From positions 62,001-126,000 of the forward strand of contig NZ_KB890458.1 in NCBI RefSeq assembly GCF_000373105.1: DNA of 64,000 bases, read 5' to 3'. The translations under genes and the position numbers were made by a program. Source of the DNA: Neolewinella persica DSM 23188 (GTDB taxonomy: Bacteria; Bacteroidota; Bacteroidia; Chitinophagales; Saprospiraceae). How positions within the stretch are numbered: position 1 is the first letter of the stretch; every line of letters begins with the position of its first letter. Below, one piece after another: positions 438-61,923 of the stretch. Below the pieces are notes generated by a model. That model saw only the letters and a list, made by a program, of their open reading frames with translations, ran no database searches and had not been told where the DNA came from.

Positions 438-2024
438 CTAGTAACCTTCATTCTGCGGGTAATTGGGACCCAGTAAATCTAATTCCGCTTCCGGAATTAC
501 CCAGTTTACGTGTTCAGGCTGGATCCGCTCCCGGGCAAAATTCACCAGGTTGTCGTTGGCGGCATGGTCACGGATGTAGTCAACCAGTACGCCCATGCGC
601 TTCAGCGTATACCAGCGCTGCCCCTCGAAGAACAATTCGCGGGCCCGTTCATCCAGCAGTATTTCCTGGTTGATCTCGGTGAAAGGTGCTGCTCCCGCCC
701 GGTTACGGATGGCATTGATCCGATCTAGCGCCATAGGGGTGTTGCCCTGGCGCATATGTGCCTCGGCGGAAATCAGGTAGGTCTCGGCCAGGCGGTAAAC
801 AATGATGTTCTTGATGGTATTGGCTTCGTTCGGGTCTGCGTCCCGCTGCTGGAATTTAAGGACCCCAGGATTCATCGTTTTGTAATACTGGGTATAAATA
901 TTGGAGTTGGGGCTGTCGCGTTCATATATCTTTATGGTGTCACCGATCGAAACGCCGTCCGGAAGATTTGTCGGATCATTATATATGTAAGCCGAAATCA
1001 TGTAGGTATTGTCGTCTCGGGTATCTCCCGGATCTTCGGCCAATAAGTCGACGAGGTAGTTGTTCGGGATAAGTAAAGCAGCACCACGTCCGCCATTTTC
1101 GTTGGAGCGAGTGATGCCTGGGATTTCGAAGTAATTGGCCACCAGGTTGAAGTGGATTTGGTTGCGGCTGCCACCACCGATTGCCCCATCCTCGAACTGG
1201 ATGGCAAAAAGCGTTTCCGAATTATTCAGATCACCGGCGAATACGTCGCGGGTATTCGGTATCAGGGCGTAATTCTCGTTGCCGATCACTGCTTCGGATT
1301 GGGTGATGGCCTCCGGCCAGTCTTCTTGCCACATAGCGGTCTTTGCCCGCAGGTGCCTGGCGGATGCCTGGGTCCACCGGCCAAAATCGGGCGTGGTCCA
1401 GGCAAGGTTTTCAATAGCAAAATCAAGGTCGGAATTGATCAGCGCGAATATCTCTTCGGGCGAACTTTTGTCCTGCGGTACGTCAAATACATTCTCCGGC
1501 GTAGTTGGCTCGGTAGTAATGAAGATGTTGTTGAATAACCGATAAAGGGTAAAGTAAGAATTTGCCCGCATCGCCCGGGCTTCCCCCAATATTTGGTTCT
1601 TTCGTCCCGCTTCACTTGTCGGAAACGTTACTTTCTCCGCCCCGGCAATGACCGCATTAGCACGGTCGATTACCCGATAGTGATTACGCCAGTAATGGCT
1701 GTAACCTCCCAGTCCGCCGGTGGTCAGGTCTCTGCCCCATCCCAGACGGGCATAGAGGGCTACTTCACCTGCCCGGCCTGCGGTCAGGTCAGATTTGGCC
1801 TGAATGATCAAGGCACGGTGATCGTTGTTGCCGGCACCGCGCTCGATATAGGACCGGTTAAGGTTGTAAAGTCCGACCACTGCATTCTCCAACCCTTCCG
1901 GGCTATTGTACAGGAAGTCTGCCGAGGTCTCGGAAAGAAGTTCATCTTTAAGAAACTCCTGGCAGGAGAACATCAGGAAAAGTAATGGCACAATTGCCAG
2001 AACTGCTTTGGTGAAAAGTTTCAT
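438..2024 (-). CDS. RagB/SusD-family nutrient-binding outer membrane lipoprotein
   Basis: Surface lipoprotein that captures oligosaccharide or another ligand and lids the SusC-type TonB-dependent transporter encoded just upstream. A lipoprotein signal peptide with lipobox FMFSC-like (LMFS-C, Cys21) is followed by the typical SusD start QEFLKDELLSETSADF. The first half holds the TPR-like helices (LGEARAMRANSYFTLYRLF). The C-terminal half ends with the family hallmark around AETYLISAEAHMRQG, the INAIRNRAGA segment and the ELFFEGQRWYTLKRMG stretch. At 528 residues it is a normal length. It is separated from susC by 75 bp, so the two are co-transcribed. No sigma/anti-sigma pair or hybrid two-component regulator lies beside it, so the inducing substrate is unknown; GH1 and GH3 glucosidases in the window suggest a beta-glucoside, which is inference only. 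Confidence 0.95.
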   Translation of the reverse strand: MKLFTKAVLAIVPLLFLMFSCQEFLKDELLSETSADFLYNSPEGLENAVVGLYNLNRSYIERGAGNNDHRALIIQAKSDLTAGRAGEVALYARLGWGRDLTTGGLGGYSHYWRNHYRVIDRANAVIAGAEKVTFPTSEAGRKNQILGEARAMRANSYFTLYRLFNNIFITTEPTTPENVFDVPQDKSSPEEIFALINSDLDFAIENLAWTTPDFGRWTQASARHLRAKTAMWQEDWPEAITQSEAVIGNENYALIPNTRDVFAGDLNNSETLFAIQFEDGAIGGGSRNQIHFNLVANYFEIPGITRSNENGGRGAALLIPNNYLVDLLAEDPGDTRDDNTYMISAYIYNDPTNLPDGVSIGDTIKIYERDSPNSNIYTQYYKTMNPGVLKFQQRDADPNEANTIKNIIVYRLAETYLISAEAHMRQGNTPMALDRINAIRNRAGAAPFTEINQEILLDERARELFFEGQRWYTLKRMGVLVDYIRDHAANDNLVNFARERIQPEHVNWVIPEAELDLLGPNYPQNEGY

Positions 2025-56228: not shown

Positions 56229-56547
56229 AAATTCTGGTTGCTGCCCGCCAAATGTAGGTAAAAGGGTAGAGTTGCCGGGAGCAGAAGGGCGCGCGAAATC
56301 CGATTTATTGTATCCCGGGCGATAAAATGCAGGGGGAAGCCTATGACAAATTGGTATAAAGTAGCTGGTGAGCTATTTTACGTCTCATATAAAAATAGTA
56401 CATTTGTTCTCAGGTTATAGGATTACCACCCAAAACGGTCTTTGCACCTGCGACCTCGCCAAATGCCGGGAAAACGTTCTGTGCCGAGCCCGGAATTTAG
56501 TTGGCAGTGTCCCATAGTTCCACCCAAAAACGATTAAAATAAAAAGT
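56229..56547. other. gap between the channel and LytTR regulator genes
   Basis: 319 bp with no supported gene; divergent promoters are expected here. It contains a near-exact 17-mer copy at 56444-56460. No CGGT direct repeats like those at 57344-57389 are evident. Confidence 0.4.
56444..56460 (+). repeat. dispersed 17-mer, one-mismatch copy (upstream of the LytTR gene)
   Basis: GCACCTGCGACCTCGCC, one mismatch, preceded by TTT, about 90 bp upstream of the LytTR regulator start. Confidence 0.65.
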
Positions 56548-57312
56548 ATGTTACTCAACGCCGTAATCATTGAGGACGAACGCAACGGCCTCATCAACCT
56601 TAAGCACTTGCTGGCTGAGCACTGCGACGAAGTCGAAGTAATCGGCGATGCTGATGGCGTCGAAAGTGGCTTGAAACTGTTTAGTCGTGAGGATATAAAA
56701 CCCGACGTTGCTTTTCTGGACATCAACCTCCAGGACGGTAAAGTCTTTCAGCTGTTGAACCAACTCACCAGTATCGAATTTGACGTGATTTTCGTTACGG
56801 CCTATGATCAGTTTGCAATGAAGGCCTGTGAATATTCCAGCATCGGTTATATCCTCAAACCCATTGATCCGGACAAGTTAGTGGAGGCTGTTTCACGCGT
56901 TCGCCCCCGCCGTCAGGGCCGCACGGAGGAAAGGTTACAGGTGATGCAGCAGTACACCAGTCACCCCAATTCTTTCGAGAAAATGTCCATTGCGGCGCTT
57001 GATGGGATACATTTTGTGAAAATCAGGGATATTGTTCGGTTCGAAGCAGAAGATAATTATACTCACATTTTCCTCCACGGTGGTGGTCGGATCACGGCCT
57101 CTAAAACCATCAAAGCCTACGAGGACATGTTGACGCCGTTTAACTTCTATCGCGTGCATAAACGCCACGTGATCAACATGAATTATATGAAAAAATTCGT
57201 AAAAGGTGACGGTGGGTACCTGATTATGGATGACGATGTAAGGATTGAGGTCAGCCGCCGCCGCCGGCCTGCCTTCATGACACAACTTCGTGTCCTTCAA
57301 GACGTTCTTTAG
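56548..57312 (+). CDS. LytTR-family response regulator
   Basis: 254 residues: receiver domain (AVIIEDERNGLINLKHLL; phospho-acceptor Asp58 in AFLDINL; VFVTAYDQFAMKACEYSSIGYILKPI) and a LytTR DNA-binding domain (about 145-250: IVRFEAEDNYTHIFLHGG, TIKAYEDMLTPFNFYRVHKRHVINM). It would be phosphorylated by the kinase two genes downstream. Three CGGT direct repeats at 21-bp spacing lie just after its stop codon and are likely LytTR sites. It is probably the first gene of a unit with the GG-leader peptide and the kinase, separated by a 110-bp gap that carries its own promoter-like element. Confidence 0.93.
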   Translation: MLLNAVIIEDERNGLINLKHLLAEHCDEVEVIGDADGVESGLKLFSREDIKPDVAFLDINLQDGKVFQLLNQLTSIEFDVIFVTAYDQFAMKACEYSSIGYILKPIDPDKLVEAVSRVRPRRQGRTEERLQVMQQYTSHPNSFEKMSIAALDGIHFVKIRDIVRFEAEDNYTHIFLHGGGRITASKTIKAYEDMLTPFNFYRVHKRHVINMNYMKKFVKGDGGYLIMDDDVRIEVSRRRRPAFMTQLRVLQDVL

Positions 57313-57332
57313 GTAGTATCAAAACTATGTGC

Positions 57333-57389
57333 TATTTTTGGAGCGGTATTTAAAACACCCAGATCGGTGTCCCCCATCCGATTAGCGGT
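57333..57389 (+). promoter_or_regulatory. promoter-like element and three 21-bp-spaced LytTR-type direct repeats
   Basis: TATTTTTG (57333-57340) matches TAnnTTTG exactly. GCGGTATTT, TCGGTGTCC and GCGGTTAGA follow, with CGGT cores at 57344, 57365 and 57386, exactly 21 bp (two helical turns) apart. LytTR regulators bind such same-face direct repeats. The repeats lie between the -7 element and the peptide start codon (57423). Confidence 0.55.
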
Positions 57390-57422
57390 TAGAATTACAA
57401 ACGTGTTATTAAGGATCTCTCT

Positions 57423-57572
57423 ATGTCTCAAAACGGGAAGAAAACAATCGAGGAACTAAAACGGGACCAGAAGGATAAAATTCTGGACCGGAAGAGTATG
57501 GATCAGGTGACCGGCGGAAAGCGTCGGGGAAGCTGGCTTCGTCGTGTCTGCGGCGGTATCATGCCACAATAA
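57423..57572 (+). CDS. 49-residue double-glycine-leader peptide (candidate signalling or bacteriocin precursor)
   Basis: The leader ends with ILDRKSMDQVTGG: Val at -4, Met at -7 and Leu at -12 relative to the cleavage after GG, the exact hydrophobic spacing of GG leaders cleaved by C39-type exporters. The mature part would be KRRGSWLRRVCGGIMPQ, strongly basic (five Lys/Arg in 17) with one Cys. The leader is polar (KKTIEELKRDQKDK). It lies between the LytTR regulator and kinase genes, 54 bp before the kinase start. This is the layout of peptide-pheromone loci. It could also be a RiPP or bacteriocin precursor. No exporter or C39 peptidase is in the window. Confidence 0.65.
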   Translation: MSQNGKKTIEELKRDQKDKILDRKSMDQVTGGKRRGSWLRRVCGGIMPQ

Positions 57573-57626
57573 AGCACGGGCAGTTTACGTAACTTGCGGA
57601 GATATATTCCGGATTTTACCCAGCCC

Positions 57627-59573
57627 ATGTCAGTAGTTCAACCTCCGCTTCATACAGCTTCGATACTGGAAGATAAGCTCTCCACCGCTACCGACCCCTA
57701 TTTGCGGGTCAGGTACATTAATGATCTTATATCAGATTATGTCTACACTAAGCCCGTTCGGGCCAGGAAGCTTCTTGGGCAACTTGCAGCTATATATGCT
57801 GCCGGGCACCCCAGAGAGTCAGACTACCTTTACTTTCTGCATTTAGGTAACCTGGAAAACCAGGAATACGACGATCAAAAAGCATTGAAGGCTTTTGAAA
57901 AGGCTGTATTGAGAGTAGATGAGCATGGTGATATTGGCGAAAAAATAGAAGTTTACCTCGATTATCTCGGTATTCTGGTTAACCTGGGGAACATGGACCT
58001 GGCCAGAGATTTCTACGAACGAAGCCTCCGGTTGATGGGGTCCTACTCCTCGGCGCGCCTACGTGCCAGAGTGCTGTGCCGACAAGGGTTTTTCTACCTC
58101 CATGATCATAGTTACGCAAAAGCTACGCCTAAATTCTTAGAAGCAGATCGTCTGCTTTCCGGAAAAGAGTTTGAACTCAACACCAAAGACCATTACTTCT
58201 ATACCCTGGTACATTCAGGTCTAGGTACACTTTGGACCAGGCCGGATAGTGAAGATAAAGCTGCCAGTGCCTTTCAGCAAGCAATCACCAGATGTGAAGA
58301 GAAAGGTTTAGGAGCACGGCTTCCCTGGCATCAACTCAATTTGGGTAAGGTGCTGATGAGTATGGAGGCTTATGAAGAGGCCATTGGGAATTTCCAGTCG
58401 ATCATCGATAATAATGCCAATGGCAGTAAGCCTGCTCTGGCTGCGGCCTATGTCAACCTTGGTCTCTGCTACTACGATACGAACGAGTCTCCGGGAGCGG
58501 TCATTCGGTTGCTCAATCATGCGGAGAAAATTTTCCTGCAAAGCAAGCAACCTAAGAAACAAGACCTCGTCTCCATTGAATTGGTCCGTGCGCAGTTGTT
58601 TTTGGACAAAAAAGACTTCGTGGGCGCCATCGAGAAACTGCAGGGTACCCTGGAGGGAATTGAGCAAGAGAAAGATACGGAGAACCTGACCCTAACGGGC
58701 CACGCTGCAGAGATTTGCCAAACATTGGCCCGCTCTTATGCTGAGATTGATGCTTTTGACCTGGCCTACTACAGCCAGGTGGAAGCAGAGATGTACCTGG
58801 ACAGGTACTACGAGCTACAGGATGCCAAACAACAGGAACAGTTTGCTGCCCGTTTTGAAGCCGAAGCCAGAGAAAAAGAAAGAGAGAGTTTACAACTCAG
58901 GGCCAGCCAGCTTCAGCTGCGCGCGCTACGCGCACAGATGAATCCTCATTTTCTCTACAATGCCCTGAACAGCATTCAGTCTTTCATTACCACCAAGGAT
59001 GCCAGCACCGCCTCGAAATACTTAGCAAAGTTCGCCATGCTGATGCGGCGAAGTCTGGAATATACCAACCGGGAATACATTACCCTGGAAGATGAAATAC
59101 TGTTTTTATCCGATTATCTGGACATCAACTGTCATCTGCGATTTGACGGACAGCTTTCTTTCAATGTGGATATTCAGGGAGAGCTAGAGGAGGACATTAT
59201 GGGGGTTCCGACTATGATACTGCAGCCGTACGTAGAAAATGCGATAGAACATGGTCTACGGACGCGCCCCAAGGGGCACATCCAGGTTACTTTTACCCAA
59301 ATCCCTGACGATGACGACAATATCATTGCCACCGTCGTTGACGACGGTATTGGACGGGCCCGGGTCCGCGAAATGCAGGAGAACGATGTAATCAGGCCGT
59401 ATCACCAATCACGCGGGACGGACATCACACAGTCCCGACTGGAATTGCTTACGGATGATCCCGATAATCGGGTGCTGATCGAAGATCTATTCCATTCAGA
59501 CGGAACTGCTGCGGGAACTAAAGTAACCGTTCGCATACCGGTAGCCGATGTTTTGATGAGAAGAGGAGGATAA
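57627..59573 (+). CDS. cytosolic TPR histidine kinase (LytS/YpdA type)
   Basis: About 648 residues, without any transmembrane segment. Roughly 1-400 are tetratricopeptide repeats (KALKAFEKAVLRVD, YEEAIGNFQSIIDNN, DKKDFVGAIEKLQGTLE), then a coiled-coil linker (EQFAARFEAEAREKE). A His_kinase domain follows with His441 in MNPHFLYNALNSIQ, and a HATPase with ENAIEHGL and VVDDGIGRARV. It is the predicted partner of the upstream LytTR regulator. TPR domains bind peptides in RRNPP-type quorum receptors, so an internal ligand such as the neighbouring peptide is conceivable; this is inference. A TTG 33 bp upstream is an alternative start. Confidence 0.9.
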   Translation: MSVVQPPLHTASILEDKLSTATDPYLRVRYINDLISDYVYTKPVRARKLLGQLAAIYAAGHPRESDYLYFLHLGNLENQEYDDQKALKAFEKAVLRVDEHGDIGEKIEVYLDYLGILVNLGNMDLARDFYERSLRLMGSYSSARLRARVLCRQGFFYLHDHSYAKATPKFLEADRLLSGKEFELNTKDHYFYTLVHSGLGTLWTRPDSEDKAASAFQQAITRCEEKGLGARLPWHQLNLGKVLMSMEAYEEAIGNFQSIIDNNANGSKPALAAAYVNLGLCYYDTNESPGAVIRLLNHAEKIFLQSKQPKKQDLVSIELVRAQLFLDKKDFVGAIEKLQGTLEGIEQEKDTENLTLTGHAAEICQTLARSYAEIDAFDLAYYSQVEAEMYLDRYYELQDAKQQEQFAARFEAEAREKERESLQLRASQLQLRALRAQMNPHFLYNALNSIQSFITTKDASTASKYLAKFAMLMRRSLEYTNREYITLEDEILFLSDYLDINCHLRFDGQLSFNVDIQGELEEDIMGVPTMILQPYVENAIEHGLRTRPKGHIQVTFTQIPDDDDNIIATVVDDGIGRARVREMQENDVIRPYHQSRGTDITQSRLELLTDDPDNRVLIEDLFHSDGTAAGTKVTVRIPVADVLMRRGG

Positions 59574-59616: not shown

Positions 59617-61923
59617 CTAACCGATTCTCCGGACCTCCTCTGCAATCCGCGCCAGTTCTCCTTCGGGGTCTCCCCAAATATCTAAAGCAGGTAAGGAGAG
59701 GAGTTGAAAACCTGCCGTTTGTAGTTCACGCAGGCGGAATTTTTTCGTCGTAATGGTCCCGTGGCCGGGCAATTCACCGTCAGGCAAAAGCACACTTTTT
59801 TTCCCGGTAGGTGAAAGGATGACCAGTGGCAGGAAGGTGTCTCTCCAGGGCTGATGGATTTCGAAGAAATGGTCTGGCAAGTAGCTTTTAAGCTTATCAC
59901 CAAAGTGTTCTGCCAATGGGTGCGGAGCAGGGGCTGGAAGTCCGCAACGTAGCAGTATCTCCTGACCCAGCGCTACTAATGCCTGCCGGTCAAACGGCTC
60001 AAATTCCGCAGCTTCTGCTGCACGGAGCAGTGCTGCAGACAAAAAGCCTGCGGTAAAGCCATCGGAAAGCAGCGCTTGCGTTATATCGTCCGGAGTCCAA
60101 TTATGAAAGAACGTTATTTCCTCAGTCGTCGAGATCAGGTATTCCCAGATCTCCAGCAGGCGCTGTGCGTCTGCTGGCGTTGGTAAAAGCGGCAGGAACA
60201 GATGAAGACCAGTTGATGCGCTGAGTGGCCAGTTGGAAATAGGAATCCACTCGGTAGCATTTGCTGCCTGGCAAAGAATGGTACCTTCCGGAAACCCTGG
60301 GGGAGGGATTGAACTTGTTCGTGCATGCCAGGCTGGAGGCGTGAGCGGGAAGAACGTTTGAGAGAACAACAATACCGGGTTCCGAACTCCTGCAACAGCA
60401 ACGAAAACTGCCTCCTCGTCATGCAATGGAGCAAGGCGAATGGAAGGACAGGGTAGGTTAGCCCTCAGGGTGGTTGCTGCATCCAGAGCGATAAACAAAT
60501 CCTCTTCGGTCATTTCTCCGGGCTTGGCTCCTTTCGCGGTTACAAATACGACACGGCCGGTCTTCGTATCGTTTGGATCACTGTCCACTGCTTCTTGCCT
60601 GGAAGCGGGGAGTACGGGAGTGTGGTCTTTGGTCCACCTTTCGATGCACCGATCAAAATACCAGGAAGTAAATGCCGTCTCCCAGTCTGACGTAGGCAGA
60701 TTAAGAAGCGGTGCCAGGAGGCGCCGCAAATGAGCTGGCTGGGCGTACCAGAAATGACGGCGACCGTAAAAATCTGGCAATTCCGATAAGTGGCGTTGTG
60801 TATTTCTAAGTTTGTCGAGTAGACCTTCTAACCGCAATAGTTGCCGGTGGGTGGTAGCTGCCTCGGTCCCGCTAAGGGGGAGTTGGTATAGGCCGGCCTC
60901 ATCTACTTCCCTGATCAGATCAGTCAGGCGGGTCTCGAGAGAAGAGAGCATGGTGGGATCGACAAATCTGGGATCAGCGGTAAGGGAATTCAGGCCGAGC
61001 CCCGCTGATTGAAGATCTCTGAACAACTGGTCTTGCCGTTTGCTAATGTCCTCAAGTTCATGGTTGAGCTGTACCTCCATCGGTTGATCGGGCGCAGGCG
61101 TGAGCTTGTGTTCCTCGTGGTATTCCTGCCAGCGCTGTTGGGCTTCACGCCTCGCTCTTTTAGCCACCCTGCCGGATTCGCTTTTGGCTGAACTTAGCAC
61201 CTCCGAAATGTCGGCTAGCTGCTCCTTGCGTTTCCGGAGCTGAGCTCTCCCCGAAAAAATAGACTTCCGTGTGTAGCGGTTGATTTTCATGAGGTAGTCA
61301 CGATGCAGATCATCCCCCTTATTCAAATAAATACTAAGCCTTTCTGTGATAAATTCCTGGCTCTCTTCCAGCGAGCGGTGACGAAAAAAACCGGTGTTTA
61401 AGTCCTCCAGCCCACGCGACACATTAGGCAGGCGTTCATACCTGCGAATGGCCGTTTGTAGTCGTTCCCGCAGGTCAATGAATTCTTTTGGTGTGAAGGA
61501 GAACCCTTCGGTGGAAATGAAGGGGCTGAGCAGGGCAGCAGCATCGGTTCCCATACCCTTAAACCAAAGTCCGACTGTCGCAGCGAGGGAATAGTCACCA
61601 AAGGCAGGTGGTTGGATTTGATCATGAATCCAAGCTTTTTCATACCCGAAGCCAGGATCAGGGATAACGTTCTCTGTAGTTTTTTTCAACCAGTCAGTTA
61701 TCGATTTTTGGAGCGCTGGAGCTTCTGCCTGAATCCATACTTGGCCTCCTTTTGTCAGCGTTTTCCTAGCCTGTTCCAGCGCCCAGGTCCATTTTCCCGC
61801 TCCTCTGACAGCAGTGTGGCGTGAGCTGGCGGTTACTGCCAGGGTATAGGTCATCGTGGAGGAGGAAAAAGGGAGAGAGTTGCTCATGATTTTGAACGCC
61901 AGCTGATAAATTCGCCTTTTCAT
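59617..61923 (-). CDS. large orphan protein with a nuclease-like C-terminal domain
   Basis: 768 residues, no signal peptide or membrane segment. The N-terminal 100 residues contain TYTLAVTASSRHTAVRGAGKW. A long helical middle section with coiled-coil character follows (SGRAQLRKRKEQLADISEVL, EVQLNHELEDISKRQDQLF). The C-terminal 90 residues (FLPLVILSPTGKKSVLLPDGEL, then KKFRLRELQTAGFQLLSLPALDIWGDPEGELARI) have the strand order of Vsr/DUF559-type restriction-endonuclease-like domains. Those domains are found at the end of DNA2/NAM7-like helicases and in toxins. The usual catalytic D-ExK pattern is reduced (LPDGEL, TTKK). There is no helicase motif. I do not recognise the whole protein. MSNSLPF (61887) is an alternative start. 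Confidence 0.65.
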   Translation of the reverse strand: MKRRIYQLAFKIMSNSLPFSSSTMTYTLAVTASSRHTAVRGAGKWTWALEQARKTLTKGGQVWIQAEAPALQKSITDWLKKTTENVIPDPGFGYEKAWIHDQIQPPAFGDYSLAATVGLWFKGMGTDAAALLSPFISTEGFSFTPKEFIDLRERLQTAIRRYERLPNVSRGLEDLNTGFFRHRSLEESQEFITERLSIYLNKGDDLHRDYLMKINRYTRKSIFSGRAQLRKRKEQLADISEVLSSAKSESGRVAKRARREAQQRWQEYHEEHKLTPAPDQPMEVQLNHELEDISKRQDQLFRDLQSAGLGLNSLTADPRFVDPTMLSSLETRLTDLIREVDEAGLYQLPLSGTEAATTHRQLLRLEGLLDKLRNTQRHLSELPDFYGRRHFWYAQPAHLRRLLAPLLNLPTSDWETAFTSWYFDRCIERWTKDHTPVLPASRQEAVDSDPNDTKTGRVVFVTAKGAKPGEMTEEDLFIALDAATTLRANLPCPSIRLAPLHDEEAVFVAVAGVRNPVLLFSQTFFPLTPPAWHARTSSIPPPGFPEGTILCQAANATEWIPISNWPLSASTGLHLFLPLLPTPADAQRLLEIWEYLISTTEEITFFHNWTPDDITQALLSDGFTAGFLSAALLRAAEAAEFEPFDRQALVALGQEILLRCGLPAPAPHPLAEHFGDKLKSYLPDHFFEIHQPWRDTFLPLVILSPTGKKSVLLPDGELPGHGTITTKKFRLRELQTAGFQLLSLPALDIWGDPEGELARIAEEVRRIG

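What the first reader, a model, noticed from the sequence alone, without database searches (positions are those of the whole stretch)
56548..59573. Candidate peptide-signalling locus: LytTR regulator, GG-leader peptide, TPR histidine kinase
A 49-codon gene sits exactly between a LytTR response regulator and a histidine kinase. Its product has a perfect double-glycine leader (V-4, M-7, L-12) and a short cationic tail with one Cys, KRRGSWLRRVCGGIMPQ. Gram-positive com/bac/pln loci place GG-leader pheromones beside LytTR regulators in this way. Here the kinase has no transmembrane helices but a TPR array, the fold used by RRNPP receptors for intracellular peptides. A Bacteroidota peptide circuit of this build is not one I can name from known families. 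The exporter is missing from the window.
Basis: partly seen in the sequence, partly recalled or inferred. Interest (0 to 1): 0.88.

Follow-up and report, generated by a model that had tools for sequence, protein, structure and literature searches.

The report
Bacteroidota peptide-signal cassette with TPR kinase
A tiny gene lying between two signalling genes in a Neolewinella-like bacterium is real and conserved in many relatives, and looks like an exported peptide message read by a soluble sensor kinase inside the cell, a design not found described in the literature searched.

Summary
Window 56548-59573 holds a LytTR response regulator (RR), a 49-codon GG-leader peptide (PEP) and a soluble TPR histidine kinase (KIN). 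The peptide is a real gene: 15 congeners match full length at 71-98% identity and pN/pS is 0.22. A peptide profile hits 166 of 398 family genomes. RR-PEP-KIN stand together in 62 loci with distinct kinases. No exporter lies in the window, but the genome has three C39 exporters. All 58 peptide-positive genomes among 120 have one. Lineages without any C39 lack the peptide, two of them keeping the kinase; a tree-based test gives p=1.6e-6. The kinase has no transmembrane helix, and its TPR fold resembles LGN and, lower in the list, Rap and NprR peptide receptors. Most likely: a C39-exported peptide signal read by a cytoplasmic TPR kinase. Reception is inferred: modelling gave no docking and coevolution no signal.

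The parts
56399..56406 (+). TACATTTG, Bacteroidota -7-type box upstream of the RR gene
   Evidence: Letters checked; a TAnnTTTG box lies within 200 bp upstream of RR in 17 of 17 orthologs (no shuffle control for this one). The -7 consensus is recalled.
56548..57312 (+). LytTR response regulator (254 aa)
   Evidence: Pfam Response_reg and LytTR over cut-off; orthologs of about 48-94% identity beside the peptide
57333..57340 (+). TATTTTTG, probable -7 box of the peptide gene's own promoter
   Evidence: Letters checked; such a box within 160 bp upstream of PEP in 34 of 63 loci (one genome counted twice) against a mean of 8.0 (max 12) in shuffles
57423..57572 (+). 49-aa GG-leader peptide gene (PEP): leader 1-32, basic linker, C-terminal CGGIMPQ
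57627..59573 (+). soluble TPR histidine kinase (KIN, 648 aa from ATG; an in-frame TTG lies at 57594)
   Evidence: Pfam His_kinase and TPR; model with helices 11-373 as a TPR array then a long helix 377-454; H441, N538, D572, G574, G576 invariant in 17 sequences; no TM-like segment in the own sequence

Best explanation
The three genes are a peptide-signalling cassette. PEP is a precursor with a double-glycine leader. A C39 peptidase-type ABC exporter encoded elsewhere (best candidate: G000:C16, L115:7917-10112, with a downstream HlyD-like gene) cuts after GG and exports a short basic peptide ending in CGGIMPQ. The conserved C-terminus is the recognised part. It is bound by the TPR groove of the cytoplasmic kinase, either after re-entry of the peptide or of a C-terminal fragment, or on the precursor before export. 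Binding changes phosphotransfer to the LytTR regulator, which controls its target genes and perhaps the PEP-KIN promoter. Shown: gene conservation and selection, cassette order, co-retention with KIN and C39, soluble TPR kinase, promoter-like boxes. Inferred: cleavage and export of this peptide, ligand-receptor relation, route to the kinase, target genes.
For: RR-PEP-KIN order in 62 loci with distinct kinases. Each of 58 PEP-positive genomes among 120 has KIN and a C39 exporter. Congeners G013 and G019 lack PEP, KIN and C39 together; G029 keeps RR-KIN with no peptide gene between and has no C39; G045 keeps a kinase with an in-frame stop and has neither PEP nor C39 found. Pagel test PEP~C39 on the corrected rpoB tree p=1.6e-6. 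The C16-type exporter is the only C39 match in PEP-positive G003 and G007 (86% identical). C-terminal conservation in 62 loci: P(-2) 61, C(-7) 50, I(-4) 50, Q(-1) 50. In G085 the cassette copy and an unlinked copy both end CGGIMPS; in G052 two copies end WNGCGGIIPH and WNGCGGIIPQ, although leaders differ. The TPR fold matches LGN-peptide complexes best, with phage Phi3T Rap plus pheromone at rank 10, RapF 45 and NprR 49 of the 50 shown. No TM helix in the own kinase.
Against: A read-through PEP-KIN single chain modelled with 24 rows gave pLDDT 23-52 for the peptide: no docking. Tail and TPR distances do not correlate beyond RR and catalytic-domain distances (partial 0.098, 89 of 1000 permutations as high). 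Concave TPR positions are not significantly more conserved than others (p=0.125). Part of the plain Fisher signal is shared ancestry. No import system was looked for. In several genomes PEP and KIN lie on different contigs (G034, G052, G059, G070, G100, G112), L180 and L184 have RR-PEP without KIN in the stretch held, and in genus g40 the PEPs seen stand alone. G082 and G047 keep KIN and C39 with no PEP found. L207 has lost GG but keeps the tail. Most further weak profile matches in genomes with more than one match end otherwise.
Confidence: 0.5

Rival explanations
1. Intracellular gauge: the kinase reads the unexported precursor, so signalling reports production or export failure inside one cell and there is no cell-to-cell message.
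For: Kinase is soluble; the conserved C-terminus is already present on the precursor; PEP is not found where C39 is not found.
Against: A conserved cleavable-type GG leader and co-retention with C39 are most simply read as export for use outside.
Confidence: 0.2
2. The peptide is an output, not the signal: a small cationic class II-like bacteriocin or other secreted effector whose production the TPR kinase/LytTR pair controls.
For: Basic, Trp-containing tail in many members; weak hits to bacteriocin families; Gram-positive bacteriocin loci have the same LytTR context (recalled).
Against: C-terminus conserved across the family instead of diversifying; the three-gene cassette itself has no immunity or modification gene; a TPR kinase gene accompanies it in 62 loci.
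Confidence: 0.2
3. Non-exported small protein that binds the kinase or regulator as a structural or inhibitory subunit; the GG is coincidental.
For: L207 keeps the tail without GG; there are no secretion data.
Against: GG in 61 of 62 loci; association with C39.
Confidence: 0.1

Closest known systems
ComCDE/Blp/Pln-type GG-leader pheromone systems (Gram-positive)
   Same: GG-leader precursor beside a histidine kinase and a LytTR regulator; C39 exporter (general features recalled)
   Different: Kinase there is a membrane receptor (ComD; start of abstract of PMC4873836 seen); here it is a soluble TPR protein, the exporter is unlinked and the phylum is Bacteroidota
RRNPP(A) receptors (Rap, Rgg, NprR, PlcR, PrgX)
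   Same: TPR receptor in the cytoplasm next to a small precursor; structural matches to Phi3T Rap, RapF and NprR among the 50 shown
   Different: 648 aa with a histidine kinase domain, GG leader, Gram-negative; RRNPP_detector used 250-500 aa receptors and analysed Firmicutes and viruses (passages of PMC10075063)
GG-leader RiPP clusters of Bacteroidales (PMC10352776) and TIGR04149 precursors
   Same: Bacteroidota GG leaders with PCAT exporters; some clusters carry HK/RR or TPR genes (passages)
   Different: Those clusters carry modifying enzymes; here no exporter or modifying enzyme in the cassette and a conserved C-terminal motif
PF06580 kinase + LytTR pairs (LytS, BtsS/YpdA type; recalled)
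   Same: Kinase and regulator families
   Different: Soluble TPR sensor and an added peptide gene

Membership tests
ComCDE-like GG-leader pheromone systems | GG-leader precursor gene beside the TCS genes | tested here: met
ComCDE-like GG-leader pheromone systems | LytTR response regulator | tested here: met
ComCDE-like GG-leader pheromone systems | Polytopic membrane receptor kinase | tested here: not met
   own max 19-aa KD window 0.92 against 2.74 in one TM-type TPR kinase; 3 of 63 orthologs reach 1.6, about ten of the 63 being cut by the end of the locus
ComCDE-like GG-leader pheromone systems | C39 exporter | tested here: inconclusive
   present in the genome and co-retained but unlinked; transport of PEP untested
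RRNPP | TPR receptor adjacent to a propeptide gene | tested here: met
RRNPP | Receptor of 250-500 aa that is itself the effector (HTH or Rap type) | tested here: not met
   648 aa, ends in a histidine kinase module; size range from PMC10075063 passages, effector type recalled
RRNPP | Peptide re-enters and binds the TPR groove | tested here: inconclusive
   no docking in the read-through model; import not testable here
TIGR04149 / Bacteroidota rSAM-modified RiPPs | Match to the precursor model and a modifying enzyme nearby | tested here: not met
   6 of 30 members match weakly (best E 1.9e-4), the window's peptide not at all; Pfam of five window ORFs around the gene shows no such enzyme
Class II bacteriocins | Antimicrobial activity and an immunity gene | not tested
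   activity needs a bench test; no dedicated search for immunity genes was made

The most novel reading that the evidence does not exclude
A widespread peptide pheromone system of Gram-negative Bacteroidota that joins two Gram-positive designs: GG-leader export by a C39 transporter, and intracellular reception by a peptide-binding TPR domain fused to a histidine kinase, with a conserved C-terminal CGGIxPQ ligand acting as a common language across many genera.
Probability: 0.4. Interest if true: 0.9.

Novelty: new variant of a known kind. Interest (0 to 1): 0.74.

Why it matters
In the passages read, peptide quorum sensing is ascribed to Firmicutes, and the searches listed no Bacteroidota peptide circuit of this build. 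Here is a defined ligand candidate, receptor candidate, regulator and exporter candidate in named culturable genera such as Neolewinella, so the question becomes directly testable. The TPR-kinase fusion would link RRNPP-type sensing to two-component signalling, and two natural genomes in which peptide and exporter are not found but the kinase remains offer a built-in control.

Tried and rejected
Diversifying pherotype tail: rejected; the C-terminus is conserved. Obligatory Cys thiolactone (Agr-like): unlikely; 12 of 62 loci lack Cys at -7, for example L007, L159, L166 and L185, and L013 too. Exporter in the cassette: tblastn of the three own exporters against the loci over 5 kb held (132, by the later count, many of them not cassettes) found, besides their own loci, one weak ABC match in L124 only; loci fetched later were not searched so. 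Docking by a read-through PEP-KIN chain: none. Tail-TPR coevolution: none beyond phylogeny. Concave-groove conservation: p=0.125. LytTR operator: the intergenic alignment showed promoter boxes but no clear paired repeat to the eye.

Tree: the first rpoB tree had the wrong reading frame for G046, which set its root; (p=2.4e-5) are superseded. In the corrected tree deep nodes are weakly supported and the carriers do not form one clade (Fitch changes: PEP 10, C39 13, KIN 6). Losses of C39 near carriers: G013+G019 (sisters, 0.995, inside the genus), G103 (inside a carrier group of support 0.913), G045 with G088 and G060 (inside a group of support 0.955), G029 (placement weak, 0.243). Peptide absent with C39 kept: G082, G047, G046, several non-carriers, and G018, whose kinase is cut by a contig end and which was left out of the test. 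The test uses one gene tree with midpoint root; root set to PEP+C39+ or flat gave p=1.8e-6 and 1.6e-6. The odds given did not change.

Limits: PEP-negative calls rest on a first look that scored at most about 17 candidates a genome; local scans later found weak peptides in G078, G080, G091, G094 and G098 (G098 without GG), counted as positive in the second table and. I assumed, without a complete printed list, that the 120 family genomes were among the 398. The tree holds 100 of the 120 genomes: 10 congeners and 10 others (rpoB missing, partial or not searched) were left out. One search dropped L126 and L207. Searches count one genome twice (L011 and L039; found).

Full report
Observation. The small product carries G31G32 with hydrophobic residues at -4, -7 and -12.

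The gene is real. tblastn of the 49 residues over 198 genomes gave, besides the window itself, 15 congeners with full-length matches of 71-98% identity and one of 53%; 57 of 198 genomes, own included, had any match at E<=1, many of the weak ones likely chance. In codon comparison of 17 orthologs pS is 0.73 and pN 0.16 (pN/pS 0.217; leader 0.242, middle 0.234, last seven codons 0.081). A profile of 30 members hits 166 of 398 genomes of the same family at E<=0.01. In a phylum-wide sample 24 of 395 genomes match at E<=0.1; only the two of the window's genus match strongly, and eight fetched loci of the others look like other GG-leader peptides. In the window's genome only this copy is clear; one more match has E 0.96.

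Anatomy. Scans of fetched loci found regulator, peptide and kinase in this order in 66 loci, 63 after removal of identical kinases and 62 after one more duplicate was found; these are not phylogenetically independent. The gap from peptide to kinase homology is 47-527 bases. The peptide has three parts: a leader ending in GG (61 of 62), a basic linker that varies in sequence and length, and a C-terminus in which proline stands at -2 in 61 of 62, and Cys at -7, Ile at -4 and Gln at -1 in 50 of 62 each. Sixteen genomes with more than one match were looked at again. In G085 an unlinked copy ends CGGIMPS like the cassette copy; G052 has WNGCGGIIPH beside a regulator and WNGCGGIIPQ alone; G054 (CGGLVPQ and CGNIVPQ) and G233 (CGGLVPQ and CGNIVPE) keep it less exactly; G418 has a second cassette; G281 shows two contig-end pieces; G065 has a tandem second gene ending SVFAPQ. 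The second matches in G059, G201, G338, G371, G379 and G397 end otherwise, that in G257 ends SPIVPQ, and the fetched G224 match has another tail; these may be other GG families. A Bacteroidota -7-type box lies within 160 bp upstream of the peptide gene in 34 of 63 loci against 8.0 expected, and within 200 bp upstream of the regulator in 17 of 17 orthologs, so both probably have own promoters.

Kinase. Pfam finds the His_kinase domain and TPRs. The model (mean pLDDT 84.6, 17 sequences) shows a helical array from 11 to 373 joined by a long helix to the catalytic part. The own kinase has no membrane-like segment; 3 of 63 orthologs reach a hydropathy of 1.6 against 2.74 in one membrane-type TPR kinase. 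H441, N538 and D572/G574/G576 are invariant in 17 sequences. The best structural matches are eukaryotic LGN TPR-peptide complexes; phage Phi3T Rap with pheromone stands at rank 10, RapF at 45 and NprR at 49. TPR folds match each other widely (280 matches at E<=0.001), so this says what it could work like, not what it is.

Exporter. The window has none; the genome has three C39 exporters. Among 120 family genomes, 58 of 58 peptide-positive ones have both the kinase and a C39 exporter; of 62 peptide-negative ones 10 have the kinase and 19 have C39. Part of this is ancestry, so an rpoB tree of 100 of these genomes was built. The first tree had a frame error and was replaced. On the corrected tree a Pagel test of peptide against C39 gives p=1.6e-6 (1.8e-6 with another root state). 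Near carriers, C39 is missing in G013 with G019, in G103, in G045 with G088 and G060, and in G029 (weakly placed); all lack the peptide, and G029 and G045 keep the kinase, the latter with an in-frame stop. G082, G047 and G046 lack the peptide but have C39; G018 is cut by a contig end. The C16-type exporter with its HlyD-like partner is the only C39 match of the peptide-positive genomes G003 and G007, so it is the best candidate.

What did not come out. A read-through PEP-KIN chain showed no docking; this is a weak test, with a tethered C-terminus and few sequences. Tail-TPR coevolution and groove conservation gave nothing significant. No importer was searched for. In G034, G052, G059, G070, G100 and G112 the peptide and the kinase lie on different contigs.

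Reading. Most likely a peptide signal exported through C39 and read by the cytoplasmic TPR kinase, with LytTR output; the gauge and effector readings remain open. It works like a cross of ComCDE and RRNPP but fails a defining feature of each (membrane receptor; small self-effector receptor), so it is filed under neither.

Literature. Searches for GG leaders, peptide pheromones, RRNPP, LytTR, TPR kinases and Lewinella/Saprospiraceae listed nothing that describes this cassette; only the listings shown were read there, and several searches had more hits than were listed. Passages of PMC10352776 and PMC10075063 were read. Subscription papers are mostly not in that library.

Noticed in passing
L362 (G379:C104) 1269-2011, minus strand: Tandem array of small GG-leader genes with a core like KSEPPPFGVETGE, repeated within one gene; a different GG peptide family.
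   Followed up: no
G659:C20:11581-24298 (one match held as L142): Six profile matches with GG-leader-like genes along one stretch in a genome of another family; the one examined is Cys-rich.
   Followed up: no
L114 (G000:C45:3000-22000): One of the own C39 exporters sits in its own gene group with several uncharacterised neighbours, perhaps a separate RiPP cluster.
   Followed up: partly
L126/L339 (G065:C160): Two different peptide genes in tandem between regulator and kinase, ending TGGIVPQ and SVFAPQ.
   Followed up: partly
L170, L194, L196, L197 (genus g40): Peptide genes without regulator or kinase in the stretch held; in L194 and L197 next to a large ORF of the same kind.
   Followed up: partly
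L122:2358-4963 (G052): A membrane-type TPR kinase with a LytTR-type regulator and no peptide gene between, about 2.5 kb from a regulator-peptide pair.
   Followed up: partly
L180:4761-5171 and L184:5272-5691: A small membrane-protein-like gene (about 137 aa, DoxX-like by eye) upstream of the regulator in two loci.
   Followed up: no
window 59617-61923, minus strand: 768-aa ORF with no Pfam match over its cut-off next to the cassette.
   Followed up: no
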